Part shown: in pieces, positions 22,882 through 60,600 of the stretch
Layout of the letters: every line of letters starts with the position of its first letter
Position numbering within the stretch: position 1 is the first letter of the stretch
DNA from: Mytilus galloprovincialis
Taxonomy: Eukaryota > Mollusca > Bivalvia > Mytilida > Mytilidae
Length of the DNA: 64,000 nt
Reading direction: 5' to 3'
NCBI RefSeq assembly: GCF_965363235.1
Contig: NC_134844.1
Location: forward strand, 53,254,872 to 53,318,871
Made by a program: the position numbers and the translations under genes
Notes under the pieces: model-generated
What the model saw: the letters and a program-made list of their open reading frames with translations, nothing else
Database searches by the model: none
Told to the model about the DNA's origin: nothing

Positions 22882-25800
22882 TTATGTCCCACTAGAACAT
22901 GTTGTATCAGTCATAATGTTATACAGTTCAATATGTGCATGAATACTAGCTATTAAACAGGAAAGCAAAGTCACTAAATCGAAGATCTTCACAGGTCTTA
23001 GATAATTCATAACCTTTTTATATCCTATAATCTTCCACCATGTAACAGTGTTTCTAGAATGCACAAATATCCTATTTTTGTCGTCGTTAGTATCTATGTG
23101 ATTGTCGTTGAAGGCAATGACATGGTCATCTTTACCTATACTATCTTCCATTATGGGATGAACAGAATTCCTACGACATTTGCATTTTTCTATTTCCGGT
23201 TTTCTGTCGTAATAACTTAGAACAATAGAACTAAATACTGCTACAAGACTGCTGCACATCAACTGTAAAAAGTATTTTCCTGAAATCGATAGAGACAGTT
23301 TAGATCAATGATGCTATTGTGAACTATTGAATTATATATACTTGTCTTGGTGAGCCAGTAAGTGATAAAAAATAAAATCAGAATAATAAACGCCTTTTTC
23401 ATACAGTCATTGTATCGTCCATTAATATGTCTCAATGCTTTTGTTTTCTTTAGTTTTCCGTTTTATTTACTATTGTTTGTCTGTTTTTCGTTTTATTTTT
23501 AGCTACGTCGTTGTAAGTTTATTTTCGATTTATGAGTTTGAATGACCCTCTTGTATCTATTCCTTCATTTTATGTTAAAACAAGAAAGAGCAGATTTTCG
23601 CAATTACTATCCCATTTCAACGGTTAAAGTGGCATAACATAATCAGTTTAGTCGAAATTGGTCTATGAAAGATTTCTTAAGTTTATAACATTACTTTGGT
23701 ATTTGCCTTCAAGTTTAATGCAGTCATTTCAGTCTTTTGTCTTCTTTTGACAATGTTCAGGTTGTTGCGTAAAAGAGCAAATCAAGAAAATTACTTCGTA
23801 CGCAAAAAAAAAGAAATATTTTTGTTTATGTATTTTATGCAAAATCGTCTGATACTTCTTATACATAAAATAAAACGGAAAACGTTAATATTGGAACTTC
23901 ATCGTTGCTAATTACAGAAATCATCGTTGCTACGAAATTTCAAAATATGCAGTTTAATTAAATTTACCAAAAAGTTCTTTTCACACCATAATTTATTAAA
24001 CACTTGTATTATTGTATTGCCCTTTTATGTTAATTAGTCACTTATAATGATAACATAAAAGGTAAGCACCCATAATTCATTATTAAATAAACATACCAAT
24101 AGCTGAAATACTTTTGGAGTTTTCTGGTAAAACACTACTAACTTGAAGCATCAAAACCATAAATGATAGGAATATCGTTATTCCAAAGCTAATACGTTCA
24201 CCTGCATCTATTGGAATAAAGAACGCTAAGATGGCAAGTATGGATAAGGCACAGGCAGGAAAAACTATGTTGTAGATATAATGGGAAGGCAACCGTTGCA
24301 TATGAATATAAAAGATAATAGTTGACGAAAACACTGGTCTTTTTTCTACTTTCAAAATTTTCCAAAACGCATGATCATCTTCATGTTCTTCATATCCGTT
24401 TATTGATTCATTTTGATCCCAAACAAGCATCTGTCGCAGATTTACTGCGGTCGTTCCAAGAATTATACTACATTCCTGGCAATCTGCTGGAAATAATTCG
24501 ATGTTTGCATTACATATTGTACTTAAGTCTCCAGAGGGTTGTGTCATAATTGTTCCATCGTACTTAACAAGAACTCTTTCAGCTTGCAATCCATCAGACA
24601 AAAAGCTTGATGCAAGTCTGAAATGAATCAAGATTGATAAATGCATTGTTCAATTTTATAGCAATGACTGAAAATTATGGTAAACTAACGCTGTATCGAC
24701 TGGAGTCGTTATCAGTAACAGTATATGATAAATGTGTTTTTGGGTAGCTTTTCATTTTGCTTAATCGAATGATGACTCATTAACAGCGGTATAACAATGT
24801 TGCCTTAATTTATTCAGAATTTATAGTGTGTTTTTCTACTTTGTGATGTTAGTTACTTTTAAAACGTTTAAATCTGATGCATTTGTTTGTCCTAAGTCAT
24901 AAACCTGATGTTCAGTGGTTTTCGTTGCAATTATTGATGTTGTTCATAAATGTTTCTCGTTTCTCTTTTTTTTATATATAGATTAGACATTTAGTTGTCC
25001 TGTTTGAATGGTTTTACAATAGTCATTTGTGAAGCCCTTTATAGCTTGCGATTCGATGTGAGCCAAGGCTCCGTGTTGAAGACCGTATTTTGACCTATTA
25101 AGGTTTACTTTAACAAATTGTGACTTAGACGGAGAGTTGTCTCATGGGTACTCATAACACTTCTTTTAATATCTATGTAAGAATATAGCATAAATAAAGC
25201 ATAATAGATAGATGGATATATCATATATATATATGTTCATTTGTAGAGCAAACACAAATCTTACTTATTAAATACTCTGACATCAGGTGTCCACACCTCT
25301 TTTCCAGATGCAGTTATATAAGACTTTCCTCCATATTGAGATGGATCCCAAACTAGATAGTCGTCTTTCCATGTCTAAAAGTAAAATAAAACTTTATTCA
25401 ATAGAAAATAAACCAAATGTTCATGTCACCTTAGGCTTTCAGTAGTCTATGTTTTAACTGCTTTTGATACATTTGTATAGTTTAGCTTTCATCCATAGAT
25501 GTTGAGTGGGTTTGCTTAGCTAATTCTTTATAGTTTTAACATGTTGCATTTTTTCTGTCTTTGTTTGTTCGTTGTCGTTTGTAGACATGGCCCCATTGGT
25601 CTTTTGCGGTTTCTCCTAGTACCTCCTTTATCCATTATTATTTTTTTTTATCTTCAACAGACATCACAAGAAAGACGCCATCTTAGTTAAGATATTTTTT
25701 ATATGCTGTATATTTATCTATGGACTGATCCTAATCAAAGTTGTTTTGGGTAATAATAATGTATATCATATCAGAATTGTTAAACGATACAGTTTTAAAC

Positions 25801-26850
25801 ATAATTTATGAATATTTAGATAAGTCTCAGTTCTATGAAAGCACTAAATAGTTGAGACATTCGCAGTGATTCTAGAAATTGTGTTACTGATTGCTATTTG
25901 TCATTATCTCAGAAAATATGGTGGCCAGATAATCAATTATTATTGTCATGTTCGACTTGTTTTAAATAATTTGATATAAAATATCTTACCAAATCAGCAA
26001 ATATGGACTGTGTAAGTTTTGCGTCTTTTTCTGACTGAGAAAAGAAAGAACCGACTATAGCAAAACTGTGTTTCAAAGCATGTACAGTAGCAGGGTAAAA
26101 ACTGTTAGATGACAATTGATAAACACTAGGATTTAATTGAAGAACAAACACATTATATTGCATATACATATATTCTTGAAGTTACGAAATACGAAACATC
26201 TTTACAATTATTATCCTTCAACATTTTGTGCAATTCATTATTATACTTATTATCAAGACGAACCCTGCATAATATTATGATCACGAGGCAGACATTCTAT
26301 AACATGATTAATGAAATGCTGAAAAAAGTAGTAATTTCAAAAATTATTTAAATATGATATATCTGATTCTTCTATATTGTATTTGATATTTAAAAGAACA
26401 CCATTTTTTTTTATCTAAATCATTGGATAGAAATTTTTATTTTCTACTTTTATTAAATCAAACATACCAGTCCCTCTAGTCTGATAAAAGTCCACTTCAG
26501 GTTTATCTTAACAGTTTCTGTAAGGTTTCGCCGTGGAATTACTTGAGAACTATATGTTGAATCATTAAACAGAACACTCCGCAGAAGCAGTTCGTGATTT
26601 ATATCTCCAAAAGCTGTAAGATAAACAGTTATACTAGTTTAACATTAGTTTCAGTTGCCTTTAAAACGTAAAAGATCTGTTACGACCATGGTAGATTTGT
26701 TCAAAATTTGTTTGATGGTGACTTTCATGTTAAAATATTATAAAATTAACGAACTATACAGACCAAGTAAAGTAAATAATACTTACAAAATGAAATATTA
26801 TCAATTAATGATAAGAACACAAAGTAAAATATAATAGAAATAGATGCCAT
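22882..26850 (-). CDS. Cys-loop ligand-gated ion channel subunit A (nicotinic-receptor-like), 427 aa, six exons
   Basis: Exons in coding order: 26787-26850, 26468-26613, 25990-26034, 25265-25374, 24097-24617 and 22882-23279 (64, 146, 45, 110, 521 and 398 bp). All junctions are GT..AG and in frame. The start ATG opens a signal peptide (MASISIIFYFVFLSLIDNIS). The extracellular domain carries LVWDPSQYGG, VWTPDVRVFN and a Cys loop of C-x13-C ending FPADCQEC. HYIYNIVFPACALSILAILA begins M1, GERISFGITIFLSFMVLMLQ is M2 with the pore-lining 9' Leu, M3 spans the exon 5/6 join, and M4 lies near DLVTLLSCLIASIHAHIEL. The loop-B GSWTY motif and the loop-C paired cysteines are absent, so it is not a classical alpha subunit and its ligand is unknown. 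Pentameric cation channel by family. Tandem paralogue of the genes at 47127 and 57631. Confidence 0.93.
23440..23575 (+). repeat. Penelope-like 3'-tail fragment in intron 5 of subunit A
   Basis: TTACTATTGTTTGTCTGTTT and TTATTTTCGATTTATGAGTT match the 3' tail of the retroelement at 27625-28850. Only the noncoding tail is present. It sits between exons 6 and 5 of the channel gene. Confidence 0.65.
24893..25180 (-). repeat. Short interspersed mussel repeat, subtype b, in intron 4 of subunit A
   Basis: GTGAGCCAAGGCTCCGTGTT, GAAGACCGTATTTTGACC and GGAGAGTTGTCTCATGGG follow the subtype-b order of the copies at 13826 (inverted) and 54304. It is inside the 647-bp intron between 24618 and 25264. Confidence 0.75.
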
Positions 26851-26929
26851 TCTATCCGTTATTCCAAATAACCACAAATGAAGAAACTGATGATTTAATA
26901 CTCCTGTCGTTTTGTAACCATCACGCAGT

Positions 26930-26947
26930 CACGTGGATTACCATGCG
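26930..26947 (-). promoter_or_regulatory. Conserved 18-bp dyad upstream of subunit A
   Basis: CACGTGGATTACCATGCG lies 80 bases 5' of the start codon at 26850. It differs at one base from the copy in front of subunit B (52254-52271) and from the four copies at 29833, 31156, 32939 and 35185. The motif holds two E-box-like hexamers (CACGTG, CATGYG) around GGATTA, a core bound by Otx/Pitx-type homeodomains. The following bases (GGAGTTTATTATC) are also shared with the upstream modules. Confidence 0.7.
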
Positions 26948-26949
26948 GA

Positions 26950-27620
26950 GTTTATTATCATTTTTAAAATGTTGTATAACGCCGTTAAATAAAGATCGAT
27001 TAAATACGTCATGAAATAGCATCGATGATAGCACATGTACAATACATTTGTCTTTACATTAGCTTTGTTTATCCTGTATTTTGTATCAAATGATTGTATT
27101 GAACATTATCTCATTTACTTTCAATAAACTTAACTTTAAGGTTCAATCTTAGAAGTCATTATATAGCATTCCCGAACTATAACGTGCTAATAGCTTTTGC
27201 GTTTAGGATTACCTTAACCACAAAGCATCTCTGTATACCTCGACATTTGATACGCGCTTTTGCTGGGGAAAAACCGCGAAGAGAGAAATGCAAATGAACG
27301 TTGATAGATTGTGTTAATTGATTCTGATAGACACAATTATATTACAATTACTTTGACAATGTTTGACAAAGTTTGATTAAAAATGAAAACGTACGGGTAA
27401 TATATAAACAAAATTATACATAATCATACCGTCTCATTTAATTTAATATGTTAACGAGTTGTATGCTTTTGTTTAGTTTGAGTATAAAACGTACGATCGC
27501 AAAACTTCGTAAACAAAAACCGATAGTTAAAAACAATCAGAGATTTGTTATAACGTTAAAAATATTGCAGTGTAAAAAAGTGCAACACAATTTCGAACTC
27601 TAAGGAAATGATGTAATAAG
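26950..27620. other. Upstream flank of subunit A, nothing further supported
   Basis: No exon or known repeat was recognised between the promoter dyad and the retroelement fragment. Confidence 0.5.
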
Positions 27621-28850: not shown

Positions 28851-29639
28851 CGTTTTTCATTTGTTTATTGGGAAATCAGTAAACTACTGTCGCCTTATTA
28901 TGTTGTTATATTGAAATATATCGAGAAAAGTGAGAGAGGATGGAGATTTGAAATGGTTTAAGATTTTTCTGTGTATTTGTTCTTTGAAAGATACCGATTA
29001 ATAAGATAAAGATCAAATCACGTCTTATATAACAAAAAACAACAACAAAAAAACCCATATAATAACAATAATAATTGCAATGTATCCTTGCTCACAGTGA
29101 AACTCGAGATGAAGGTGCAAAAATCATCGTACTAATTGTTTGCTTAAGTTTTCAAAATTCTCTAAACCGACTTCCGGGAACGCGTCGCCAGTAAACTCAA
29201 TTTGAATCAATCATATCACCAATTGATGCTAATTAATACTATTATCTACCAATTGCACTGACCGTTTCCTTTTTTCAGCTTACAAAAAAGTAACATTTGA
29301 TTCATTGCACATATAGATATAATGCATGTACACATTGTATACACCAAACAACACGTAGACATTATTGAGTAGCTACTTATACACCATTGGCATACAATTG
29401 GTTTTTTCCTCATTCCAATCAGCTTTAATATCGAGTAATACTATATCGTATATGTAAAAATAATGATTCATAAGAAGAAAGATTAAATCGTAGATATATC
29501 CTGTAAGTGAGCATTGATTATACATGTTATAACTTTTGACCTTATGTATAAAAAAAATGTTTGTTGGCGAATTTTTAAGTAACTTAGATAAGCTAAAACA
29601 TTAACAAGATGTATTATAAATAAAATTACACTATACATC
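28851..29639. other. AT-rich stretch, nothing supported
   Basis: No exon, RNA gene or recognised repeat. Confidence 0.5.
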
Positions 29640-30600
29640 ATCTGCTTGTCAAGTTCACGTTATATTGTCCGAATGATAACACATTTAAAAAAACATCCTT
29701 CAACATTCAACTTGTTTGAACAAAGGGCGAATAAGCAAGGGAAGTAAATGCGGACTTGTCTGATATATTTGCCGACTTGAAATGTATAAATTATTGATGA
29801 TGTAATTTTTGATTTATAACATAAAGTATGTTCACGTGGATTACCATGTGGTATCGGTTGTTATTTCTAAAATGTTTGATTTTTAATGTTATATGCAAAT
29901 GAACTGAATAAGCATTGCTTAATATTGATAATCATATATTTACAATTCATTTAGATTTATTTACACTGATTAAAATACTCATTCTAGTTAAAGGCTTTGA
30001 TAAATAACCATCATTTCCGGGAAATGAATGACTCTAAATCAATTAAATCACTAGCAGCATTAATGGAATTGATTAAAAAGGATGAATGTGACTTTATTTA
30101 AGTGATATATTTGTAGTTTATATTTTCATCAGGAATATCACAAGCTATGTTATATCTTAAACAAGTTGTATAGTTAATAGACATTTTTTTTTTATTTTGA
30201 AATAAAAAGCAAGAAAGGTGATCATGCAGGACCCTGAAATATAACAATCAAAACGGAAATAATCTTTTGATAAAATAAATCTCAGATAAAACACTGTCAG
30301 GGAGTTATCAGCTCAATTCAATAGTACTATATCTGAATGGTTACAGATAATTTGATATTTCATGAAACATGTTGTATGTTGCACAAGTTGGTCATGTTGG
30401 TGTCTAGAAATATATAGAGCTTTTATGCTTTAATCGTTATTAATTGGAATTGTTTCTTCAGTTCAAACTCTGCTAAGCCTTGTAAACTTTTCAAATGGGA
30501 TTCTCGAGAATTATGAACATATTCAAGATAAAAATCTTACTTATGTTAACATAAATTGAATGAGATAGAGTATTAATAAATCTTTCAATTTATCATCCGT
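29640..30600 (-). promoter_or_regulatory. Orphan channel-promoter module 1
   Basis: The module carries the 18-bp dyad CACGTGGATTACCATGTG at 29833-29850, followed at higher coordinates by ATGCAAATGAACTGAATAAG, TTTATTTACACTGAT and the palindrome TTTCCGGGAAA at 30014-30024. The part to about 30450 (CATGCAGGACCCTGAAATA, GAGCTTTTATGCT) also matches module 3. Orientation equals that of the genes. No clear splice donor is left at the expected place. Confidence 0.65.
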
Positions 30601-30702
30601 TGTGCATAATAAAAAAAGTAAACAATTGGAAAAAAATAGTCAAAAATATTGCTGTAGTTTATTTTCTAGTATTTGATCTAAAGATTGACTTTTATAAATT
30701 GT

Positions 30703-30758
30703 TTTTTTTGGACGGAGAGTTGTATCATTTGCACTCATATCACATCTTCCTATTGAAT
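30703..30758 (-). repeat. End fragment of the short interspersed mussel repeat
   Basis: GGACGGAGAGTTGTATCATT followed by CATATCACATCTTCCTATT is the shared end of the family. Only about 55 bases are present. Confidence 0.6.
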
Positions 30759-30989
30759 TAAAGTTTTAAATTTTTACGACAAGTTCACTTGGCAATGAAT
30801 TATTTTGCACATTATCTTCTGTCAACTTTTCGATTTCTGTTTTTGGTCTGTGTAATGTTTGAAAGCAAGCTAAATGTAAGACTCAAAACCAAATCAAAAT
30901 ATGGCTTGTCGGACATGTCGGAGGTACATGTATATAAAGGTATATAAACAAAAAGGCTAAATAAAACACATTGTATACATGTAGATTAT

Positions 30990-31580
30990 AACTTTGAATT
31001 ATAGACTTAAAGTATAATTATTAACTATTAGTGTTTTGTATAGACAAAGGATAAATAAGCAAAACAGTCGATGCTGCTCGATCTAATATATTTGCTCACT
31101 AGAAATGTATAAACTATTTTTTGTGTATGTTTTGATTTGTTACAATAAATATTTTCACGTGGATTACCATGTGGAGTCTGTTATTTTTCAAATATTTTGG
31201 ATTGTTCTATTTTAGATGCAAATAAACTGAATACGCATTGCTTTATATTAATAATCATATGTTTACAATGCTTTTGAATATACATTAGATTTATTTACAC
31301 TGATCAAAATACATATTTTACTTGAAGGCTTTGATAAAAAACCATCATTTCCGGGAAATGAATGGCTTTGAATCAATTATATTACTGACAAAATTAATTG
31401 ATTCGATTGAAAAAAGGTGAATATGGCTTTATTTAAGTGATATGTTTAGGTTTGCTTTCCTAATGCATCCTGCCAGATATGTCATATAGTTAACATTTGC
31501 ACAGTAAAATATTTGAAAAAATATTTTTTATAATTCATGAAAAATGTCACAATTTGTACATGTTATTGTCAAAAAACAAA
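30990..31580 (-). promoter_or_regulatory. Orphan channel-promoter module 2
   Basis: The dyad CACGTGGATTACCATGTG is at 31156-31173 and TTTCCGGGAAA at 31348-31358, with the intervening ATGCAAATAAACTGAATACG block. It aligns with modules 1, 3 and 4 along several hundred bases but is shorter at its right end. No splice donor was found at the spacing of the real first exon. Confidence 0.65.
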
Positions 31581-31727
31581 AGTTATAGATCTTATGTGCT
31601 TAAAGCTGTTAAATCAAAAAGCAATATTTTTCATCTGTTCAAACTATACTTATCGTACAAGTAAAATTTTTAGCGCCATACAACCAGTTCAAACCACAAT
31701 TTTTTTACATTTAAAAATGCCTGTATA

Positions 31728-31860
31728 ACGTCAGGAATATGACAATTGTTGTCCATTCGTTTGATGTCTTTATCATTTGATTTTGGGACTTCTCGTTTTG
31801 AATTTTCCTCGGAGCTCACTATTATTGTGATTTTACCTTTTTCTTAAAATTTTAAAAGGT
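31728..31860 (-). repeat. Dispersed repeat R2, inverted copy
   Basis: TGACAATTGTTGTCCATTCG and GTTTGATGTCTTTATCATTT are the reverse complement of the R2 blocks at 41945-42020. The copy ends in TTTTCCTCGGAGCTCACTAT. It lies between promoter modules 2 and 3. Confidence 0.65.
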
Positions 31861-32779
31861 TTATCAAACTATAGTGACTTATATCTGTATCAACATTCCT
31901 TTAAACTATGGGAGGTCTCGATTTGAGAGTACTGTACATATTTTAGATATAGGTCTTTCCAATGTAACATGTATTGACCGAATTAAATTAGAAAGAGTTT
32001 ATACAAATCTTTTAATCATTCATCCGTTGCACATGTTAAAAGGAATATAAAAAAATATAAAAAAAATTGATAATAAACTGAAATCATTCCCTCGCCAAAT
32101 CTTCGACATCAATATTTGCATGCTGTACATTGTAGGTGTCAGACTATCAATTAAAAGTCCCTATCTGTTCAACCAAATTTTGCAATTTCACAGCTTTCGA
32201 AATATTTTACCTTAAGTTTAACTTCATAGAAACCAGGTATATCCCGAATTGTACATGTATCAGCTTTCTACATGCCAATTTTCAACATACATGTATTTTC
32301 AAAATCATATAAGTAAGAAGAGGCCTTCCGAAAAGAGGTATCACTACAAATAACCCCTGGTTTTCTGGAAATCTTAAATTAATATACATTGGAGTGCATT
32401 AATCCTCAATTTTGAGTGCAAACTCAAAGACAAGTAAAGTTTGGCTCAAAATGGCCTTTATATATTTCTCTTCCACTACAAGTTTCATATATGCCAAATT
32501 GGTGTTTAGTTTAAGTAAACAGGGACATCAAATGCACTATTATTTTCCGAGTAGGCCTACTTTCACATACTTTCTAACTTGGAGGAATTAATTGGTGGTA
32601 TGACACCTTGTACGTATCAATGAAATGCTTAGAAAACTTTGTTCGCGAAGTCATCCCATACACCTAGTCGATTTTTTTGGAGAGAAAAAAACATATTCAT
32701 CTGACCATACATTAACAATTTATTTAACATTATTATAACCCATCTGTTAATACAGTGTATGTTACATTTTTCGAATCAT

Positions 32780-33660
32780 AACACTTACATTTTATAAAAA
32801 ATTCCTATAACATTAAACTTGTATAAACAAAGGATACATAATCAAACAAGTTGATGCTGCCCCGTCTGATATATTTGCCGACTTGAAATGTATAAATTAT
32901 TGATGGTATAAAATTTGTTTTATAACATAAAATATGTTCACGTGGATTACCATGTGGAGTCGGTTGTTATTTTAAAAATGTTTAATTGTCAGATGGTATA
33001 TGCAAATGAACTGAATAAGTATCGCTTAATATTAATGATCATATATCTACAGTTCATTTAGATTTATTTATACTGATTAAGAAACCCATTCTAGTTGAAG
33101 GCTTTGATAAATAATCACTATTTCCGGGAAATGAGTGACTTGAAATCAATTAAATTTTTAGTACCGTTAATGGATATGTTTTTTTTTTCTATCAGGAATT
33201 TACCAGCTATAATTTAATCAAATTGTATTGCTTAAAGAATATATTTCTTCTTGTTCGTTTTCAAAGGCTAGTAATGTGATTATTCAGGAGCATGAAATAG
33301 AAGATTCAAAATGGTTATCATCTTTTGAAAGAATGAATGACAGATAAAACATGTAGTCGTTTGGCTCAATTAAATAGTAAAATATTTGAATGATCATAGC
33401 TATTTTTCATATTTCATGAAAAATGTTAAATGTTGCACGTGTGTTTAAAACAAATATGGAGCTTTTATGCTCTATTTGCAATTGTTTCCCTCTGAACAAA
33501 GTTTGCTTCTTAAATATCAAAAACTATTTTGACTGATATTTGCGACATTGTTCTATTTATGGAAGGGGATATGTCGAGAATAATAAACATATTGTAGATA
33601 TAAATTGGCCGAATTGAATGGGAAAGTATTATAAAATAAAATATCACTTTATACGAACAT
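32780..33660 (-). promoter_or_regulatory. Orphan channel-promoter module 3 with a splice donor
   Basis: The dyad CACGTGGATTACCATGTG is at 32939-32956 and TTTCCGGGAAA at 33121-33131. On the minus strand a donor GTAAGTG starts at 32788, 151 bases from the dyad; the matching distances are 144 in gene A and 158 in gene B. A short ATG frame (32839, MYPLFIQV) stops before the donor, so the coding first exon has decayed or the exon is noncoding. The stretch to 33500 matches module 1. Confidence 0.65.
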
Positions 33661-34494
33661 TAGAGGAACCAAGAGAAAGCAATTTGTCTCTTTGTAGCAA
33701 ATTTAAAACGATGTCATGACTGTAACAGTGTAATATTGTCATGTTATTATCGGAAAAGTGTTGCCATGTTACACCGTATTCGAATATAATGGAATGTTTT
33801 GGCAATAATCGAAGTTTTCCTTGATGTACTTTATTTATTTAGTTGGTTTTGGTGTCAGATCTAAAAAAAAAATTAAATCCTTCAGCAACGTTAATGTCTC
33901 ACAACCTCACCATACTTGATGAATTGATTAAATAGAAGGGTTAGTGATATTTACACTCGAAAACAAATTCACAGTGCAATGGCAATCAAACAAGCAAAAA
34001 TAAGCCAACAAAACACAAATTACTCTACTTTACGCAAACCCATTCAAGAACTGGGGGTGATATTAGGTGCTCCAGAAATGTAAGCATATTGGTATGCTTC
34101 AAACATGTCAAAAACAGAAGAGTGATATCAGGTGCTCCACAAGAGTACGCAGATTATGCTTTAAAATGGCATTTGTCTGGTTGCTTATGGAAGTATAATT
34201 CCAGTGATTAGTCTCATTCAGTACGTCCTTTTTTAGGTAAAGAAGACAGTATTGTGGTTACAAAACTCGAAAACATCTGTAAAACACATATTACATAATT
34301 GTCAAACTACTAGTGATTGCGTCTGTCATATCCACCAAAGAATGACATCGACTACATTACTTGGAGATTTTGGTGTAATTGTTTTTTTTTCATCTTAAAA
34401 GAAGCAACCCCTAGCAATTGATTCGAAATAAAAGTCCTGGTATAAAATATCAACATGATCAAATAGGCATTATATTATCTCTTAATTAAACAAG
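33661..34494. other. Intergenic stretch, nothing supported
   Basis: I recognise no exon, RNA gene or dispersed repeat. Confidence 0.5.
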
Positions 34495-34955
34495 AATGTG
34501 TCCATAGTACACGGATGCCCCACTCCCACTATCATTTTCTATGTTCAGTGGACCGTGAAATTGGGGTCAAAACTTTAATTTGGAATTAAAATTAGAAAGA
34601 TCATATCATAGGGAACATGTGTACTAAGTTTCAAGTTGTTGTAAATTTAACTTCATCAAAAACTACCTTGACCAAAACCTTTAACCTGAACTTTGCACTA
34701 TCATTTTCTATGTTCAGTGGACCATAAAATTGGGGTCAAAACTATAATTTTGCATTAAAATTAGAAAGATCATATCATGGGGAACATGTGTATTAAGTTT
34801 CAAGTTGATTGGACTTCAGCTTCATCAAAAACTACCTCGACCAAAAACTTTAAGCGGACGGACGAACGGAGGCACAGACGGACGGACGGACGAACGGAGG
34901 CAGGGACCAGAAAACACAATGCCCCTCTACTATCGTAGGTGGGGCATAACAAAAT
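34495..34955 (+). repeat. Dispersed repeat with duplicated 170-bp core and GGAC tetramer tail
   Basis: Two tandem units of about 170 bases (34525-34695 and 34696-34860) start CACTATCATTTTCTATGTTC and contain CATATCATGGGGAACATGTG or a close variant. They are followed by a run of GGAC/ACGG tetramers (about 34855-34905) and end in TAGGTGGGGCATAAC. GATGCCCCAC at the start and GTGGGGCAT at the end are inverted. A truncated relative is at 4890-5032. Noncoding. Confidence 0.75.
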
Positions 34956-35029
34956 GGATTCGTATTAAGAAAAAGGTGATTAATATTACCCAATCTTCTT
35001 ATTGAGTGCATCATACATTGTTAGATTTA

Positions 35030-35850
35030 TAACACTCACATCCTATCATACAAATTCCTTAAACATGTATCGACAAAGGCCCAATAAGCAAATAAAGAAG
35101 TTACTACCCTGTCCGAAATCAAAGCTGACGATAAAAGTATAAACCAATGATTGTGTATTTTTTATTTGTAACATAACATATATTCACGTGGATTACCATG
35201 TGGTGTCTGGTGTTAATTATTAAAAAATTGTTCGATGTTTTATGAAAATGAACTTAAGGAAGCTGGCTTGTCATGTTTTGGAATTTTGGTCTGATTTTCG
35301 GAATCCTCTGGTTTTATCCATTTGAATGCATTAACAAATTTTGACCGGTGACCCCCATTTTTCTTTTTATAATTCTTTTACATGTATAATGATAAGCTGT
35401 CTGTTAAAGTCTTTTAAAATTTTAATTACTTTTTAATAGTTTTTGAGGACTTTAACTTGTCAATGATAAAGCTATGAAAAGTCAAGAGAGAACATTTTCC
35501 CGCCAAAATTTCAATGGCTTATATACCGAAAACGAGCACGGTGACCTATATATTTTTTTTCGCTCTTTGTATTCCTTTATTAATCCCCTATCAATATAAA
35601 CTAGTGTTTTGAAAAGTTAATTACTTTGAAACTGAGAAGCGAACTCCCTTAAGCAAGGCTTAATAATGATAGATATTTTATAACAATGTACATTAAATTT
35701 GTTTACACTGATCAGAATATATATTCTAGTTGAAGGCTTAAATAAATAACATCATTTCCGGGAAATGTATGACTTCAAATCAATTAAATTACTGGCACAG
35801 TTTAAAAATCATAAAAACCGGAATCCTTCCCTCGCCAAATCTTCAACATA
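35030..35850 (-). promoter_or_regulatory. Orphan channel-promoter module 4, split by a MITE
   Basis: The dyad CACGTGGATTACCATGTG is at 35185-35202 and TTTCCGGGAAA at 35755-35765. The usual spacing of about 180 is stretched because a TTAA-flanked element (35254-35652) has entered. A minus-strand donor GTGAGTG starts at 35039, 146 bases from the dyad, matching the spacing in genes A and B. The flank TTCCCTCGCCAAATCTTC near 35827 recurs near 32087, so the repeated segment may extend beyond the module. Confidence 0.65.
35254..35652. mobile_element. TTAA-flanked MITE (element 1)
   Basis: TTAA at 35254-35257 and 35649-35652 borders imperfect inverted ends, GGAAGCTGGCTTGTC at the left and the complement of GGGAGTTCGCTTCTC at the right. 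Removing it restores the continuity seen in modules 1-3 (GAAC joined to AAGCAAGGCTTAAT). The TTAA target and GG start fit piggyBac-like or Kolobok-like MITEs. Confidence 0.7.
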
Positions 35851-35880
35851 AAATTTTTTTAACAGAATAACAGTTTGACA

Positions 35881-42870: not shown

Positions 42871-43550
42871 GCATCACGAGTGTGTGGATCATACAAACAT
42901 ATTTACCCGAGCATCTCTTTATGTTAAACTACTGTACCGTTGAATGTGTATTAACTTAAAGTAAAACTTCTGTCCTACTCCCACAGATGTGAGTTATACA
43001 TGTTATATTATACTCCTGATATATAAAACTTCCTTTTTCTAGAAATTAATGCCATTCTACTTAACTTTGAAATATCGTTAGTCAATTGTTCTTATGAACA
43101 TTGAACCAATTAATCAAGGACACCTTGCGTACATGTATGTTTGCTAGGGAGACCAAGTGCTATCATCAAAGTTATCATTGATGAGCACTGTCGATTGATT
43201 TAAAAAAAAAAACATGAACAAATTATCTATTTTTGGTCAGAGTAATACGGAAACTTAAATATTTTAAGATGCAAAAAAGATAAAAAAAATCAGGATAAAG
43301 AATTTTTTAATGATATCATTTATATAGCAGTGAACTCCTTCTTTGGCAATCCAAAATTTTGCTGTATGATAAGGATCTAGAAAAATATAATAAAGTCGAT
43401 ACTTTAAAAAAGATGTAACTTTCTTCGATGAAAGATAAACACAAACACAAGTCAAATCTACGTAGATGCCTTCTATTCTGATATCATAAATATCTTGAAT
43501 GTATCAACCAATAATAGTGTTATCAATTTCGTTTTCTAACTTTTAATAGT
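42871..43550. other. Intergenic stretch, nothing supported
   Basis: No exon or recognised repeat. Confidence 0.5.
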
Positions 43551-43765
43551 AACGCATATTACCATGTGGAGTGTCATGATATTTTATCGTGTATAATAGT
43601 TCTATACAATAGGTAAACAAACATGATGTGCTAGCTAAAAAATTATTATTGTAAATTTATAATAAGCTTATCTTAACATTATTTTTCTATACACATACAA
43701 AAGCTCATATATGAAGGGATAGTTGAGACATAACTCATATCGTGGAAATGAATGGCGTAAATTTT
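43551..43765 (-). promoter_or_regulatory. Decayed fifth copy of the channel-promoter module
   Basis: ATATTACCATGTGGAGTGTC at 43556-43575 keeps the right half of the 18-bp dyad and its flank. CGTGGAAATGAATGGCG near 43741 is a decayed form of the TTTCCGGGAAATGAATG block at the expected distance. The left half of the dyad is mutated and no donor is evident. Confidence 0.45.
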
Positions 43766-45456: not shown

Positions 45457-48287
45457 GTTATGTTATATCTTATAAAAGTTTGTTTAGTTCATAAAATGGG
45501 TTTTAAAAGAGGAAGGCATAATTGGCCACATTAAGGTACAAAGTATGATGAAAAAATAATGTATTAACGTTTTAGAAAATATCCTATATGTACTGGACGT
45601 CAGCTAATGAAAAGTAAGTAGAATAAATATATAAAACTGTGCGCTCCCTTTTTAAATAGTCTTTGTTGTATTTGTATGAACCAGGAAAGAAATGTAAATT
45701 ATAAGAGTTAATTTTGATACGATATTTTATCGATTAAGAATTAGTCAAATTAATGTGAATGCCACCATTTCAGATATTTCTAATGACCAAAAAAAGAGAC
45801 GCCATATTTGCGCACCAAACTGTTCTTTGAGCTCTGGCCTAGCGGTCATTAAACTTTCGCGCATGATTTTCGTACTCAGACCAAAAATCAACCAATCAAA
45901 ATACTGGATTTGGTGTTTCGAGCACTAATTTTGTACTCCAAGTTCCGAGTAAATTTTTATGACCGAGGATCCTGGTGTTTTCTAGAAGTTGTCTAATTGG
46001 CAATCGTACCATATTTCTGTATTTGATACCTAATGTTATATTGATTAGACCGTTGGTTCTAAGACGACATATTTTCTCACCAAAATGTTCTTTGAGCTCT
46101 GACCTTCTAGTCTTTTGAGTCAGTTTTTTGTACTCATACTTCAAAATCAATCAATCACAGTGCTGGATTTCATGTTTTGAGCATGATTTTTTGTGCTCCG
46201 AGCACTGAACAAAGTTTTATGACTTCAAGGTCAGGTGTATACTAGAAACTGTCTAATTGGCAAAAGTACCACATCTCTGTATTTGATATCAATGCATAGT
46301 AGAAAAGCTTTTTCCATCAAACACGGTCTAATGACCTTCTTGATAAATCCTCTTTTAAAATAGTTTAACGGTCGGTCTGTTATTGACGTTGTAACTTGAT
46401 ACATTTGTACCTACTTTTTTTATTCATAAATATTGAAGGGTAAAACGATATACAATGTAATATCTAATCAACACATTAGAAGATAATGTTGTTTATAAAT
46501 TGTGTTTTTGTTATCCCTTGAACCGTTATCTCAGAGTTTATATTTTTATCATGTACACATTCTCTCCTGTAATCCCCTTCACGTAAGTGTTGTTATATGA
46601 CTGTTCAATTTGTATTTTTTAAAAGGGAAGAGAATAAGCATGACGGTTTCCATTGTTTTGAGACTTGATAATGGTAGGAAGTAATTGTGCAATTTCTTAT
46701 TTTGTTTCAAAATATTAATTGGCTCACCAAGACCCCACAGATTGCTATCCCACAAATAAAGGACGTAACTTCGAAACAAGTTTTATTCAATATGTTTAAC
46801 GCATGTTCAATGAAAAATCTCATTTTTACACTAATGCTATTGTCTTTATTTCAGAAAGATTTACCTTACTGCCTGTAAGTGAATCCAGTTATATCTATTG
46901 AATGAGAGGGAGAATATAATATTAATGCAACACCAAAAAAAAAAAACAACGAAAAAACAAGTGATTCCCCCGATATTAATTAAATCGCATTTTATTGTGC
47001 ATAAATTCACTATAGTATTAAAGATGTCACAAACTAAAAGTGATACTTAACAAATAGATAATATTAAATCAGTTGTTGTTCCTATTAATATATCCGTCGT
47101 TATAGTAAAATAGTATGGCATTACGATTAATATAAATCCGATATCCTACACGTTTCATCATTCATAATCATATAAAGTTCAATATGCCCGTAAATAGTAA
47201 CTATCAAACAAGAAAGTAAAGTTACCCAACTAAATAACTTAATGGGCCTAAAATATCGCATCAGCTTTCTGTACCCCCACATCTTAAAACGGTCCATAGT
47301 CTTGTCAGAGTGCTCTTTAATACCGGTCGTGATATGGTCAGTACAGTTTTGTTGTTCTTCGAACGCAATTTTGTGTTCATTTTTGCATACACCGCCATGT
47401 AATTTGGGATGAACAGAATTCAGTCGACATGTGCATCTATCAATGTTTGATTTTCTCTCAAAATAGCTCAGAACAACAGAGCTAAATATTACTATAAGAC
47501 TGCTACACGTTATCTGTAAAAAGTATTTCCCTGAAACAAAATAGAAAAAAAGACAGTAACTCAATTCTAGCGTCCAATAAACATAAGACATATATGTTTA
47601 ATTTTTCGTAGAATAAGTAATTGATGGCGATACATTTCGGACAATAACAAAATTGCATTATGCCGCAAAATGTTGCATGTGTGAGTTTGCTTGGCGATCT
47701 AATACTGAATGTCGTTCAAATGCATTGTTTTCATATTAAGTGATATGAGAATTTTACCACAGAATACTTAAAACACTTTCATTCCTTTATAGGTAAACAC
47801 AGTAAACTAAAACTAATAAAAAAAACATTCATCTGAAGGAAAGAAATCATACTGGTAGCTAAACCACATACCTAAACTAAAGATTAAGGAGAACGAATTA
47901 TAGCACAGGTAGTGTAAAAAAATATCAGAAGGAAAGGCGTCGTCTGTTCTTCTGTGGCAATCGTCTTGTAAATAGAAAAAGTGGAAATAGAAAAAAGAAT
48001 CTTTGAAAAGGTAATCCATTCAAACGCGGAATGATAAATTTGTATTCATCTGTGATGAAGATGTGTCATATTTCATCTGTTGATGTCTTTAACATCGGTG
48101 TAATAAGCTTAACTTGGCAGTAAGGATGTCTTGGTTCATATCTTTTCTTGTACGCTGACATCATGTATTCAGGAAACTATGATAATCATTATGAAATAGT
48201 TATCAAAGGTACAAGGATTATAATTAAATACATCAGACGCTTGTTTTGTCTCACCAGTGACGCTCAGATCAAAATAGTTATAAAGCC
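45456..48287. repeat. Full copy of the duplicated 3' block of channel gene B
   Basis: This block holds the 3' flank, exon 6 and the first part of intron 5 of gene B. Its outer parts are repeated at 44092-45456. The 3' flank itself contains two diverged direct repeats (about 45806-46030 and 46070-46290), each with TGTTCTTTGAGCTCTG and a CTAATTGGCA block; the deletion in the short copy begins inside the second of them. Confidence 0.85.
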
Positions 48288-51200
48288 AAACAATTAAAAA
48301 TGTGTGCTTTATCGAATAGATTAGGAGCTATCAATCTATATTGTTTGCTTTTTAGATATAGATTAATAAATGGAATGTTCGAAAGGGAACATTTATATCA
48401 TCAATATTGTCGTATTTTGTTTTAGCTTTTTAGCGATGAGCATTGTCAATTACTATATATATATATATAACTCGTTAACCCAACAATGTTAGACCTGTAA
48501 ATTTGCTTTTGCAAATTGTTTGTTCTTCCCTCGCCGGGATTCGAACCCATGGAACTGAGATATCGTGACACCAAATCGCCTGCACTGTAGCCGTCCCGCT
48601 AGACCACACGAAATAGTTGCCTTCTCTTAAACATAAACAGTACAATTTAATTGCATTTTTTCCTTTCTGTTTATTTCTCATCACAACCGTTTGTTTTTAA
48701 AATATTGATGCTAATGTTTGCATATAATCTCTCTTTTTATTTGTATATAAATTTCGATATGACTTCGATTGTCAACTTAAAATAATAATCTTAGAAAGCT
48801 AGCAATTTAAAATTGACATTCAAATGTACATACCAACAGCGGTAATACTTTTGGAGTTTTCTGGTAAAACACTACTAACTTGAAGCATCAATACCATAAA
48901 AGAAAGGAATATTGTTATTCCAAAACTAAGACGTTCGCCTTCATCTATTGGGATAAGGAAGGATAGAACTGCTAGTATAGATAAGGCAGAGGCCGGAAAC
49001 ACTATGTTGTAGATATAATGTGCAGGCAATCGTTTCAAATATATTTCTAATTTGAGAAATGACGGAAATGATGTGTTCTCTACATTCGTGATCTTCCAAA
49101 ATGCATGGTCATCTTTGTTTTTATCATATCCGATGGTTGCTACATTGTCGTCCCAGACAAACATTTGCTGTTGACTGACTCCGGTCGACCCAAGAGCTAT
49201 AGAACATTTTTGGCAATCCGCTGGAAATAATTCGGTATTGGCACTACATATAGTACTAAGCTCTCCAAATGGCAGTGCAAGAATTGTTCCATCGTTCTGA
49301 ACAAGTACTTGTTCTGCTTGCAGTCCATCAGACAAAAAACTTGATTCTAGCCTGAAATGGGAGTAAGACTTTGTATACGTACTGTTTAATTCAAAAGCAT
49401 TTGATGCTGTCCAAATGAAAGATAACAAAATATTAATAACTTATTACGATTGTCTTAATTAACAACATTAATACAAATGCACGAACAAACAAGTAAAAGA
49501 ATGAAATAGTACACATTTGTAAATGTATCTGATAACAAACAAATCTAACCTGTTATAAATTAAGAATTCTGGTGTCCACACCTCTCTTCCTGTTGCAGTA
49601 AAATAGGATATTCCATCATATAAAGAGGGATCCCAAACTAAGAATTCGTCTTTCCATTTCTAAAAATAAAAATTGAATTGAATAGAATGTATTACAATAC
49701 GAATTTCTTTATTTCATAACATTTTCAAGTAGCGCATATTGTTGTTGTTGATGAAAGGTATTATTGTTTTCGTTAAAATCTCCAATTTTTAATGAGACTA
49801 GGTTTCACAATCTGGTTATTTTTATTGTCCTTTAAATGTTATTTCGTTTAAACCAGATCTGCTAGGGTAATAATAGCAATGTTAACGTACTGGTATTCAA
49901 TTGATTAGATTGATTGGTATTACAAAACGACTCACCAATTCAACTGTTATAGTCTGTGTAAGTCTCGCTTCTTTATCTGACTAAAAATATAAGAGAACAA
50001 ACACCGTTGATATTAGATGGTATTTTGTATAATAGTACAAAAGTAGCAATGCAACATGTACAAGTAAGTTACAAAAAGTTTGCTGAGATGCTTAACACAT
50101 TCGATCTTATTCAACATACGTGTTCCTTAATGACATTTGTCACCAATATACAATGAGTGGTAAGGTATTCGATATGTATAATTCAATGGGATATAAACAT
50201 TGTATTTGACAGCGATTTCAAGCTTGATAACAAACGATACTTGCTGCTCCTTGCTTGTAATTAGTAAAACAGCTAACTGGTTTTCTTGTAATTAATGTAC
50301 TAAATTTAAGTATATATCATACCAGATCTTTTAGTCTTAAAAAATTCCACTTCAAGCTTATCTGAACAGTATCTGTAACATTTCGACGTGGGATAACCTG
50401 TGCATTATACGTGGATTCGTTAAATAGGGCACTACGTAATACGATTTCCGGATTAACGTTCTGTAAACCTACAACAGAACGATAAAACTATAAGGAAAAC
50501 TCACATTGTTTTTTGTTCAGATTTACGTGCTGCTTCCTATTCCCGTGTCAGGATTTGATTTCACAATGCATGGTATTGACGTTGTCTGTTTCGTTTTTTA
50601 AGGCCGTCGTGTGATTACCTTAATTAGTATTTGTTTTCTCCCTTGATTGATATCTTCTGACATGATTTATGATAGTTCAATATTGGTAAACTGCCGTTCC
50701 ATAAATTTTAAACAGAACAAATGTAGTTATTTCGAATAACTGGTAGTGTTTATTCAAGAATTTTTTACGATAGACAATAAACACAACATTTGTTTTTAGA
50801 TACAATTGATATATTAAAATAAATACATCTTTTTGAATTATCAAATTTTTATTAAAGCACAAGGGTAATATCCAATACAACTGCATTGTCTTTTAAGAGA
50901 ATTTCAAACTCATATATTAAAAACAAACTGTCAACACCATGGTAAAGCACTGTAATACCTTACGTATTGTACGATTCTCTTAATCAGTTACAATCACAGT
51001 ACACAACACTCATATTTTTTCACCTTTAATATCAAATCAAACAGACTTAGAAAAATCAAATTACACGTGCTCGCGGTCTATGCTTATCTTTTTTATCTGT
51101 ATATTGGGTTATATGACTTTCGGTAGTCTTTTGATGTCATCTCGGTGGTGAATTAGATGACGTCTAGACTAAATTATTTACGAAATAGTTATATGCATCA

Positions 51201-52160
51201 TCGAGTCAATTCGTCGGAAATTGCTTATTTTAGACTTTTAATAATTTAGAGTTATATGCCTTAGTATGCTTTTAATAAAATATGAGTACTTGAGTCAAAG
51301 AGGCGAATTAGAACATGAATACGACAGCTTCAATCATAATTGTTTTCCTGTACTCAGATTGGCAACTGCTTTACCGTTTATAGTGACCACAGCCATGACT
51401 CCTTTCCATAAAAATTTGAAAACCGCAAAACACAAATAAAAAGGAAAAGCTGTGATGATAGAAAGAGTACACAAATATAAAAGAAACAAACTAAAACACA
51501 GAAGCACGCACGATTGTTTCAAAGTTTAAATACAAATAGTTTGCATGGACACCACAGTGACTCTTTTATCTCACATATAATTTATCATTAGCTCCATGAT
51601 TCAGTGTAGTTTGATCGATATAACGAATGAAACATTTTGAATCTATTATACGTTATAAATTGGTATCAAATTGAAAAAAAAAATAAATATACGCCTTTCT
51701 TACTCTTCAAATTCTATAACATCACCACAAGAAGCCGTTTTATATGAAGTAAACAGCCGAATTAAGGCATACTTCTTTTGATTCTCATTTAAAAGAAACA
51801 AGTGTATGAAACCAATTAAATAAACAATTACAACGTGATGGGTGAACAAACAAATGCATAACGGTTTCGCCAAAAAATATAGTGAAACAACATACAAAAT
51901 ATGATACGAAATAAAATCATTGAAAAATTTACAAGTACACTTTACTTATTTGATGTATTCGAAGCGTTTTCTTCTTCTAAAAATGTGTTTGAAATTCAAT
52001 ACAAGTTTATGTAACTCTAAAACATTTTGCAAACTAACATTTGGTCAAGATATAAAAAAAAATGAAGCGCAACTACAATAAATACGTAATACTTACAAGA
52101 TATACATTGATAAATAAACGATAAATACGCAACAGTTAATACAGTAACACTAGAAGTCAT
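47127..52160 (-). CDS. Cys-loop ligand-gated ion channel subunit B (nicotinic-receptor-like), 428 aa, six exons
   Basis: Exons in coding order: 52097-52160, 50323-50468, 49936-49980, 49550-49659, 48834-49351 and 47127-47530 (64, 146, 45, 110, 518 and 404 bp), all GT..AG and in frame. Signal peptide from MTSSVTVLTVAYLSF. The extracellular domain has FLVWDPSLYDG, EVWTPEFLIYN and a C-x13-C loop ending FPADCQKC. M1 follows LPAHYIYNIVFPASALS, M2 is GERLSFGITIFLSFMVLMLQ, M3 spans the exon 5/6 join and M4 is near WVTLLSCLIVTIYGHIEL. Loop-B GSWTY and loop-C paired cysteines are missing, so the ligand is uncertain. The cytoplasmic loop (after LSYFERK) is short and diverges most from A and C. Intron 5 holds a SINE and part of the duplicated block. 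Confidence 0.93.
48465..48617 (-). mobile_element. tRNA-derived SINE in intron 5 of subunit B
   Basis: On the minus strand an A box (TGGTCTAGCGGG) and a B box (GGGTTCGAATCCC) about 60 bases apart form a tRNA-like head. It is followed by TTTACAGGTCTAACATTGTT, which looks like a conserved SINE body, and by a TA-repeat tail at 48454-48470. Head length and the body behind it argue against a functional tRNA. I could not find a clear target duplication. Confidence 0.7.
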
Positions 52161-52253
52161 GTCCTCTTCGATCGTGAATACATGTAAAACAGTGTTGTTA
52201 TACCTTTTCCGTTTTGTTAATATCTATTGTAATTACTTTGTCCACAAATCAGT

Positions 52254-52271
52254 CACGTGGATTACCATGTG
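52254..52271 (-). promoter_or_regulatory. Conserved 18-bp dyad upstream of subunit B
   Basis: CACGTGGATTACCATGTG lies 94 bases 5' of the start codon at 52160 and is identical to the four copies at 29833, 31156, 32939 and 35185. Distance to the exon 1 donor is 158 bases. The recurrence at a fixed place in two paralogous genes argues for function or recent common descent. Confidence 0.75.
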
Positions 52272-57630: not shown

Positions 57631-60600
57631 CTATTCCACATCAGAGCATGTACTTGTATTCATGACATTCAACAGCTCAACATGTGCAGATACTGTAGTT
57701 ATAAAGCAGGCGAGTAAAGTAACCCAATCAAATATTGGTAGAGGTCTAAAATATTTCCTCAGCCTTTTATATGCAATAATCTTCCATTTATTTCTTGCGT
57801 TATCGTGTTGCTGTAATGTTTCCGGTTTGGTATCGCCTGTATCTACTTGTTGGTTGTTCAAAGCAATGACTTGATCTCTTTTGCAGAAACTGTCATCTGA
57901 AGTGGGTTGAATAGAAGTCGGTGGACATGTATATTTCGGAATTTCTGATCTACTGCCAACATAACTTAAAACAACAGAATTGAAAACAGCTACAAAGCTG
58001 CTGCAAGTCAACTGTAAAAAGTATTTACCTGAAACAGATTAAAAATATTAGGTACGTAATGATCTTATGTCTTGTATTGGTATGTAGATGTTGATGTGCA
58101 AATAAGTGTGTTCAAATGTGTGTAGTTAAAAAAAAATTTGCATATGCATATGTGTCTCTATCAGTTAAAAAGGATAAATGTTTAATCCGTCTCGCATACG
58201 ATTTTTGACCACTAAATTGTATTTCTTAAATTTTTCCTGCTAGCTAATAAATAAACGACCCATATTTAGATTTTTTGTGACGCAAAATAGTAATTGAAAT
58301 GCTATTAAAGGTAATTAAACATTTATATTAAGTTAGATATCATTTTTTATTTTGTTGATAGATAGGTATTTTAACTGTTGACGGATAGTATTGCAATTCT
58401 GTTTACATTTAAGTAGGCATTTAGCAATACTTCAGATCTGTTGTTCATCTTTATTTGAGGTATTCACAAAAACCGGCGTGATTTGAAGTAGGGATAACTT
58501 ATTGTAAACGAGATGTTACTAAAAGTTTGGTTTACCTGTATTGCTTTTCTTCTTTTCATGTAAAAAAGAAGATGTGGCATGATTGCCATTGAGACAACTT
58601 TCAACAAGAGACCAAAATGACACAATAATTAACAGCTCTAGGTCACCGTACGGCCTTCAACAATGAGCAAAGCTCATACCGCATAGTCAGCTTTAACAGG
58701 CCCCGACATGACGATATGATACAATTCAAACGAGAAAACTAATGGCCTCATTTATATTTACAAATTGTATTTCGGGTTAACTTCCCCAATTCAATGTACA
58801 TCTTATTGACTTATATTGTAGACAGATATGATATATTTTTGTTGCTATAAAACATTTTTTTTATTTTTACGATATTTTGGATATGATGTATACTTAAGCA
58901 GATCAAGTTTTAGTAGACTTTGAAATTGAAAAATAAACCTACCTACAGCGGAAACGCTTTTGGAGTTTTCTGGTAAAATACTGCTTACTTGCAGCATCAA
59001 GACCATAAACGATAGAAAAATCGTCATTCCAAAACCAAGACGTTCACCTTCTTCTATCGGAATAAAGAACGCTAAAACAGCAAGTATAGATAGTGCAGAT
59101 GCAGGGATAACAATGTTGTAAATGTAATGTGCAGGTAACCTCAGCAAATAGATATGAATTTCAGCAAAAGACGCAACGATAGGCAATTTCTCTAAACGCC
59201 AGATTTCCCAGAACGCATGACTATCTATATCATCGTCAAATCCAGTTAACGATTCATTTTCGTCCCAAACGAATATATGTTGTTGGCTGACAGCAGACGC
59301 TCCGATAATTATGTTACATTTCGTACAATCGGCAGGAAATGATGCTGTATCAGCGTTGCATATAGTGCTCAGTTCCCCATAAGGTTGAGCGTTAATTGTT
59401 CCATCGTATTTGACAAGAACTTTTTCAGCTTGAAGTCCATCTGATAAAAAGCTTGATTCAAGTCTGAAAAAAAAATGGTTAGAATTTAGAATAGATGTAT
59501 ATAAGTTTACCTATACATAATGCATTTGCAAAGATGTATTTATTAAATTTACCTAAACAATATGCATTGCAAATTATTATATAAGAGTAAAAAAATTTCT
59601 GTGTATAATTTGGATACAAGAATAAATTATTGAAAAATGATTAATCGTATTCAGTAAGCGTTTATTAAAAAGAGGATTTAAAATGTTCAATATAATAAAA
59701 AGAAAGAACAAAACGTGTTGGTAAATTGTGTGTCAGTTTACCTTTTATAAATAAATAAATAAATCATAGATATTTAAAATAGAACTAACTGGCAATAAAT
59801 AAATAAACACAAGTATAATGATGTAAATGATAAAATTAATTGTCAAACCGATTAAATATTGTTAAATCAGGTGTCCAAACTTCCTGCCCTGATGCTGTCA
59901 AGTATGATTTTCCTCCGTATAAAGAGGGGTCCCAAACTAAATAGTCATCTTTCCATTTCTATAACAAAAAGAAATAAAACAAAAAATCATGATTTTTTTA
60001 AAACATATTCAATAAACCCGTTCAGTAATTATTAGTCTTCAGGCGCGTAGCGACCCGTACGCAAAAACGCAGTTGCGTACACATCGAAAATTTGACAAAA
60101 ATAAAAATATGGTAAATCTAGTAAGAATAAAACTTAAGTAATAGAATTAATTATAAAGTGTTATAAAAATATGTTAATAGTCATTTTGTAACTATATTCC
60201 GTTCCGGAAACTAGTTTTCTCTTTACATTTTCGGGACCAGCATCGTGATTGTGCTGCTGATGCAAACAATTAAAATAGCTGAGTCCTCGGGGTTTCAGAA
60301 TACAATAAGTGCGTCTACTATGCCTCCTTACCCTGACATCTTTTCTGAAGATTTCAAAATGACTGATGAAATAAAACGTGATGTTCTATTAAGGGTAATA
60401 TTTTTGCAACCTATATTCGCCGTTTTTTTTTTTTTTTGACAATCAACGTGTTTTTTACTTTTTTATTTTATGTTCGGTCATGCAAGATGGGTGCCTCGTT
60501 CATTTAATTATAGGTGTCTCGAGATTTAAAGTCCTTATTCTCCATGTGCAAAATTTAAGTGCTTGTTTTCCTTGCTTTGTAAAAATAAAAGACTCGATTT

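What the first reader, a model, noticed from the sequence alone, without database searches (positions are those of the whole stretch)
29640..35850. Four orphan promoter modules upstream of subunit A: lost genes or alternative first exons
Four diverged copies of a module of about 0.6 to 0.9 kb repeat the dyad in gene orientation without any recognisable channel exons beside them. Modules 3 and 4 keep a splice donor 151 and 146 bases from the dyad, the same spacing as in genes A and B. They could be relics of deleted paralogues, or active upstream promoters whose noncoding first exons splice into exon 2 of subunit A.
Basis: partly seen in the sequence, partly recalled or inferred. Interest (0 to 1): 0.75.

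Follow-up and report, generated by a model that had tools for sequence, protein, structure and literature searches.

The report
Orphan promoter copies beside receptor gene
Next to an acetylcholine-receptor-like gene in what is probably a mussel genome, one broken-off gene start (promoter and first exon, without the gene body) has been copied head to tail, and four copies kept the same short control motifs while the DNA around them drifted, which suggests that they still act as switches.

Summary
Four head-to-tail modules (about 0.9-1.1 kb, 66-80% identical) lie upstream of receptor-like gene A, in its orientation, each with the exact dyad CACATGGTAATCCACGTG. Whole-genome DNA searches with M1 and M3 matched only the four modules, so they are not a dispersed repeat family at that sensitivity. 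I found a fifth, decayed module (M5, 43.37-43.76 kb), with a duplicate M5' outside the window.

Module homology to gene A runs from its exon-1 splice donor through its promoter. No credible relics of exons 2, 4, 5 or 6 were found (exon 3 is too short to judge). M1-M5 and M5' form one clade apart from the A, B/D and C/E promoters: one detached 5' end, later amplified, rather than four lost genes. Donors survive in M3 and M4, aligned with gene A's, and are missing from M1, M2 and M5.

Within M1-M4 a 21-bp dual E-box and a 14-bp STAT-like palindrome are invariant while 47% of ungapped columns vary (permutation P 2e-4 and 1e-4); in M5 both have decayed. I favour a retained cis-regulatory array acting on gene A. 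Splicing into A exon 2 is open only to M3 and M4 and would remove A's start codon and signal peptide. Transcription was not testable.

The parts
29600..30637 (-). Orphan module M1; dyad 29833-29850; no GTRAGT donor (homologous site reads GTGTTA)
30963..32118 (-). Orphan module M2; dyad 31156-31173; donor deleted; contains a dispersed repeat at about 31637-31904
32709..33605 (-). Orphan module M3; dyad 32939-32956; donor GTAAGT with its G at 32789
34947..35857 (-). Orphan module M4; dyad 35185-35202; donor GTGAGT with its G at 35040; split by an insertion of about 0.4 kb (roughly 35260-35655)
43370..43762 (-). Fifth orphan module M5 (not in the finding); decayed dyad CACATGGTAATATGCGTT at 43551-43568; duplicated outside the window as M5' (87-88% identical)
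29832..29852 (-). 21-bp invariant block CCACATGGTAATCCACGTGAA of M1 (others: 31155-31175, 32938-32958, 35184-35204): two E-boxes, CACATG and CACGTG, 6 bp apart
30014..30027 (-). 14-bp invariant CATTTCCCGGAAAT of M1, STAT-like palindrome (others: 31348-31361, 33121-33134, 35755-35768)
   Evidence: STAT reading recalled
29785..29791 (-). Invariant TATA-like TTTATAC of M1 (others: 31108-31114, 32891-32897, 35138-35144)
   Evidence: TATA reading is inference
26787..27077 (-). 5' end of gene A: exon-1 donor (G at 26787), signal-peptide exon (ATG at +79 from the dyad), promoter with dyad 26930-26947 (CGCATGGTAATCCACGTG); the part homologous to the modules
22882..26614 (-). Receptor-like gene A, exons 2-6; exons 2, 5 and 6 translate without stops, 3 and 4 read by eye or as tblastn match
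47127..52271 (-). Receptor-like gene B with exact dyad 52254-52271 and donor G at 52097
57631..62982 (-). Receptor-like gene C, exons 2-6; its exon 1 and promoter lie outside the window (about 67.0-67.2 kb)

Best explanation
The four modules are head-to-tail copies of one detached 5' end of a receptor (Cys-loop, nAChR-like) gene: promoter, first exon, splice donor and the beginning of intron 1. The gene body was most likely already absent before the copies multiplied, since the decayed fifth module M5 belongs to the same clade and has no such body beside it either. Repeated sequence later separated the copies. M1-M4 are most likely retained as a cis-regulatory array (enhancers or promoters) for the nearest gene in the same orientation, subunit A: each carries a dual E-box that could bind basic helix-loop-helix factors in pairs, a STAT-like palindrome 163-174 bp further upstream (552 bp in M4, insertion included), and a TATA-like box. 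M3 and M4 may also give short noncoding first exons. Shown: homology, monophyly in the tree, no detectable later exons, locus-restricted matches, motif invariance. Inferred: transcriptional activity, target gene, identity of the binding factors.
For: Promoter/exon-1 homology of A to modules starts at the exon-1 donor and covers about 300 bp; the donors of A, M3 and M4 align. tblastn queries from exons 2-6 gave no match at E<1 between 26.7 and 47 kb; six-frame profiles of exons 2, 4, 5 and 6 gave nothing there better than E 0.67, on the opposite strand. Tree: M1-M5 and M5' one clade at 97/96, apart from A, B/D and C/E. Whole-genome DNA searches with M1, M3 and M5 matched only this locus, and 5 of 5 exact 19-mers of the dyad lie here: M1-M4 and gene B. 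Constraint: invariant runs of 21 and 14 bp against a shuffled mean longest run of 8.6, P 2e-4 and 1e-4; simulation along the tree gives P from 5e-5 to 1.6e-3. Internal controls: dyad and palindrome are decayed in M5 and M5', and pseudogene D has one change in an E-box.
Against: No transcript, chromatin or cross-species data, so selection is inferred from four related copies only. M5 shows that orphan copies can decay. The blocks were picked after the fact as the longest runs, although the permutation allows for that. Gene A's own dyad has one change and C and E keep only one E-box, so the full dual E-box is not indispensable in the receptor genes. Two of four modules have lost the donor.
Confidence: 0.55

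Rival explanations
1. Neutral relics: a 5' gene fragment was amplified by unequal exchange and is drifting; the invariant blocks are chance or slow-mutating.
For: No later exons detected; donors lost in M1 and M2; M5 and pseudogene D are decaying.
Against: Runs of 21 and 14 invariant columns at 53% overall column invariance have P 2e-4 and 1e-4, and the 21-bp block holds the same dyad that receptor gene B keeps exactly, and A with one change.
Confidence: 0.25
2. Alternative promoters of subunit A whose noncoding first exons splice into A exon 2.
For: Donors in M3 and M4 align with A's donor; same orientation; a TATA-like box is invariant in M1-M4.
Against: Exon 2 has no Met and the product would lack the signal peptide; M1 and M2 have no donor. 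M4 would give only M-I-G in frame (by eye).
Confidence: 0.12
3. Promoters of other, unrecognised transcripts (noncoding RNA, or for M5 the C1q-domain gene 4 kb downstream, which was duplicated together with it).
For: M5 and the C1q ORF lie in the same order and orientation in both copies of the duplicated block.
Against: M5 and M5' have decayed dyads and no GTRAGT donor; no Rfam match in the window at gathering thresholds; no start-to-stop frame is shared by M1-M4 downstream of the dyad (M4 alone has one of 42 codons).
Confidence: 0.08

Closest known systems
Tandem nAChR gene arrays of bivalves (Jiao et al. 2019, PMC6896357; abstract and section 8 seen)
   Same: Tandem array of nAChR-like genes with stepwise duplication, gene degeneration and loss
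   Different: Here gene starts without bodies were multiplied and kept their control motifs; the section I read describes gene arrays and one degenerated gene that keeps a domain, not promoter copies
Clusters of tandem alternative promoters with variable first exons (UGT1A, protocadherins; recalled)
   Same: Duplicated promoter plus first-exon units upstream of a common gene body
   Different: The first exons here look noncoding, two of four lack a donor, and splicing to a common exon is unproven
Tandem E-box (E1-E2) elements bound by BMAL1/CLOCK (Rey et al. 2011, PMC3043000; passages seen)
   Same: Two E-boxes with a 6-bp spacer
   Different: Binding factor, rhythm and species untested; other bHLH factors use such boxes (recalled)
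Partial gene duplicates that keep only the 5' end (fragment pseudogenes; recalled)
   Same: Promoter and first exon copied without the body
   Different: Motifs remain invariant in four copies, unlike a freely decaying fragment

Membership tests
nAChR-like (Cys-loop) receptor gene cluster | Neur_chan_LBD and Neur_chan_memb domains | tested here: met
   3 of 3 exon-5 proteins (A, B, C) match PF02931 and PF02932 above cut-off; the exon-6 protein of A matched none
nAChR-like receptor gene (the modules themselves) | Coding exons 2-6 downstream of the promoter | tested here: not met
   No tblastn match at E<1 and no profile match better than E 0.67 for exons 2, 4, 5, 6 between 26.7 and 47 kb; exon 3 not judged: the 15-aa query from B missed even A's own exon 3
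Genome-wide repeat / transposon family | Many dispersed copies | tested here: not met
   Module queries M1, M3, M5 match only this locus; queries with intervening sequence (30480-31080 and 33500-35000) returned 42 and 45 matches. First-look sensitivity is limited: M1 did not return M5, A or B. M2 was not searched on its own and holds a dispersed repeat
Alternative first-exon array of subunit A | Splice donor at the end of each unit's first exon | tested here: inconclusive
   M3 and M4 yes; M1, M2 and M5 no GTRAGT within 260 bp of the dyad
Alternative first-exon array of subunit A | Transcripts joining the unit to a common exon | not testable with these tools
   No RNA data held
CLOCK/BMAL1 E1-E2 element | Two E-boxes with a 6-7 bp spacer | tested here: met
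   CACATG-GTAATC-CACGTG in M1-M4 and B; only one E-box left in A, C, E and M5
CLOCK/BMAL1 E1-E2 element | Binding by the clock factors and rhythmic expression | not testable with these tools
   No binding or expression data

The most novel reading that the evidence does not exclude
A detached receptor-gene start was amplified into an array of promoter-derived enhancers, each carrying a dual E-box and a STAT-like site, giving one receptor subunit clock-, bHLH- or cytokine-type inputs in several copies: regulatory material made by multiplying promoters without their genes.
Probability: 0.25. Interest if true: 0.75.

Novelty: new variant of a known kind. Interest (0 to 1): 0.5.

Why it matters
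Five bivalves were counted to have 99 to 217 nAChR genes each, many in tandem arrays (PMC6896357), and what controls the expression of such copies is little known (my judgement). If the modules are active, the locus shows promoters being multiplied without their genes and retained, with two built-in controls (decayed orphan M5 and pseudogene D), so the idea can be tested with RNA and chromatin data from related species.

Tried and rejected
Genome-wide repeat family: rejected at the sensitivity of the search. Off-cluster near-matches of the dyad: the pattern with up to 2 mismatches gave 8 forward and 2 reverse matches against 4 and 0 for the reversed pattern; with up to 3 mismatches the other strand's version gave 137 against 101. 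I compared flanks for three of the off-cluster sites only (C1, C6 and C9): two match only around the motif; the C9 site has in addition a 106-bp, 76% match to a repeat inside M2 that also lies elsewhere in the cluster. I take all three as chance. The 2-mismatch sites listed only were not examined. Gene F (45% identical, same contig): M1, M3 and A gave weak matches in its upstream 10 kb (best E 5e-5), but no CACGTG there, no GTRAGT in the matched stretch, and no match of the promoter profile, so not counted as a copy. Known structured RNAs or tRNAs: none in the window. Relic exons: none credible. A shared small ORF in the modules: none. Seven paper searches listed nothing that I recognised from titles and abstract starts as orphan promoter arrays at receptor loci; that is the limit of the claim.
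Full report
Setting. The window lies at 53.25-53.32 Mb of contig 7 of a 1.38-Gb genome; a mussel is my guess from recall, no tool named it. On the minus strand is a tandem array of receptor-like genes: A (22.9-26.85 kb), B (47.1-52.2), C (57.6 to about 67.1, exon 1 outside the window) and, outside the window, D (118.6-123.7, a copy of B with two stops and a frame break) and E (129.8-139.7, a copy of C with a frame break in its last exon). The exon-5 proteins of A, B and C carry the Neur_chan LBD and membrane domains (3 of 3).

The observation. Exact dyads lie at 29833, 31156, 32939 and 35185; the 20-base pattern also matches A and B with one mismatch each, and no match occurred in 100 shuffles. 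In gene orientation the dyad is CACATGGTAATCCACGTG. Around it the four modules share about 0.9-1.1 kb, with pairwise identity 66-80% over the curated part. M4 is split by an insertion of about 0.4 kb with an 82% copy elsewhere in the cluster, and between M3 and M4 lies an element (34488-34953) of which the search listed about 40 genomic copies at 94-98%, out of 5430 first-look candidates. The modules themselves do not behave like that: whole-genome DNA searches with M1 and M3 found only the four modules (5 and 6 matching pieces), and with M5 only M5 and M5'. M2 was not searched alone; it holds a dispersed repeat at about 31637-31904. All 5 exact genomic copies of the 19-mer CACATGGTAATCCACGTGA lie in M1-M4 and gene B; of 3 one-mismatch copies, two are A and D and one is on another contig, where the homology is confined to the motif. 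The search's first look is coarse: M1 alone did not retrieve M5, A or B, and the A promoter retrieved only itself and B, so very diverged copies elsewhere could be missed.

Sensitive BLAST within the cluster shows a fifth orphan, M5 (43370-43762), with a decayed dyad and palindrome, and a duplicate M5' about 73 kb further on, in a block that also duplicated B, C and a C1q-domain gene. A 130-position sequence profile built from eight copies found 13 matches up to E 10 in 174 kb: 10 are the expected set (8 training rows plus D and M5'), with E 1.4e-13 or lower; 3 are weak (best E 0.009). C was missed; its promoter runs across a locus boundary.

What the modules are copies of. The homology of gene A to the modules begins at A's exon-1 donor and covers about 300 bp. 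GTRAGT donors lie at +143 (A), +157 (B), +158 (D), +145 (C), +145 (E), +150 (M3) and +145 (M4) from the CACGTG end; M1, M2, M5 and M5' have none within 260 bp. Such a hexamer is expected in 0.6% of 21-bp stretches, and pairwise alignment puts the donors of A and M3, and of A and M4, in the same columns. tblastn with exon queries gave no match at E<1 from 26.7 to 47 kb; six-frame profiles of exons 2, 4, 5 and 6 gave only matches of E 0.67 or worse there. Exon 2 is recognised between A and B, C, D and E at 71-74% DNA identity, so a relic of like age should have been seen. Exon 3 is not judged: the 15-residue query from B missed even A's own copy.

One event, not four. A tree of 11 promoters puts M1-M4, M5 and M5' in one clade (97/96), with B/D and C/E at 100/100 and A outside; M4 is a long branch and the root is arbitrary. 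As no later exons were found beside the five in the window, one detachment followed by amplification is simpler than four or five separate gene losses. That step is inference.

Constraint. In the M1-M4 alignment 53% of 393 ungapped columns are invariant, yet one run is 21 bp (the dyad with its flanks), the second 14 bp (CATTTCCCGGAAAT) and the third 9 bp (TAATTGATT). Shuffling columns 20,000 times gives P 2e-4 for the longest, 1e-4 for the second and 0.013 for the third. Simulation along the tree gives P 1e-4 and 5e-5 at fitted branch lengths (mean invariance 50%), and 1.2e-3 and 1.6e-3 at 0.8 of those lengths (57%); the observed 53% lies between. M5, in the same clade, has 5 changes in the 21-bp block and M5' 4, counted by eye: an internal control for decay. 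Gene B keeps the dyad exactly, A has one change, pseudogene D has one change in an E-box, and C and E keep only the CACGTGAC part.

Mechanism. Read as motifs, the dyad is two E-boxes six bases apart. In mouse, BMAL1 sites often hold E-box pairs with spacers of six or seven bases (PMC3043000, passages), and canonical E-boxes were found near the starts of three clock genes in oyster (PMC5224872, passages). Other bHLH factors use the same boxes (recalled), so the clock reading is a lead only. The palindrome fits a STAT site and TTTATAC a TATA box, both from recall. I judge a retained regulatory array for gene A most likely (0.55 for the whole statement), neutral relics next (0.25).

Comparison. 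Bivalve nAChR genes are known to be massively expanded, in tandem arrays with losses and degenerated members (PMC6896357, abstract and section 8). Multiplied promoters without genes at such a locus did not appear in the listings of seven searches of the paper library.

Noticed in passing
44093-46171 and 47635-48287: A 715-bp stretch (44093-44807) recurs 100% identical at 45456-46170, and the roughly 650 bp between them are 99.8% identical to a piece of gene B's last intron (47635-48287): very recent duplication or an assembly artefact.
   Followed up: no
38929-39540 (minus strand): C1q-domain ORF (PF00386) downstream of M5, with a 77%-identical copy downstream of M5' and a third copy with one stop at about 92.2-92.6 kb on the other strand.
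   Followed up: partly
L022, L023 and L024 (window coordinates 118.6-123.9 and 129.8-139.8 kb): Genes D and E are a second copy of the B-C block; D has two stops and a frame break, and E has a frame break in its last exon.
   Followed up: partly
28014-28454 (plus strand): Repeat-like ORF without a Pfam match, lying between M1 and gene A, with five partial relatives in the 157-kb cluster, four of them with stops.
   Followed up: partly
34488-34953: Element with about 40 listed genomic copies at 94-98% identity (5430 first-look candidates), containing two 169-bp tandem units: probably a recent insertion.
   Followed up: partly
29894-29901, 31217-31224, 33001-33008: Octamer ATGCAAAT (ATTTGCAT in gene orientation) 43-44 bp upstream of the dyad in M1-M3; changed to ATGAAAAT in M4 (35243), not seen in A, B, E or M5.
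   Followed up: partly
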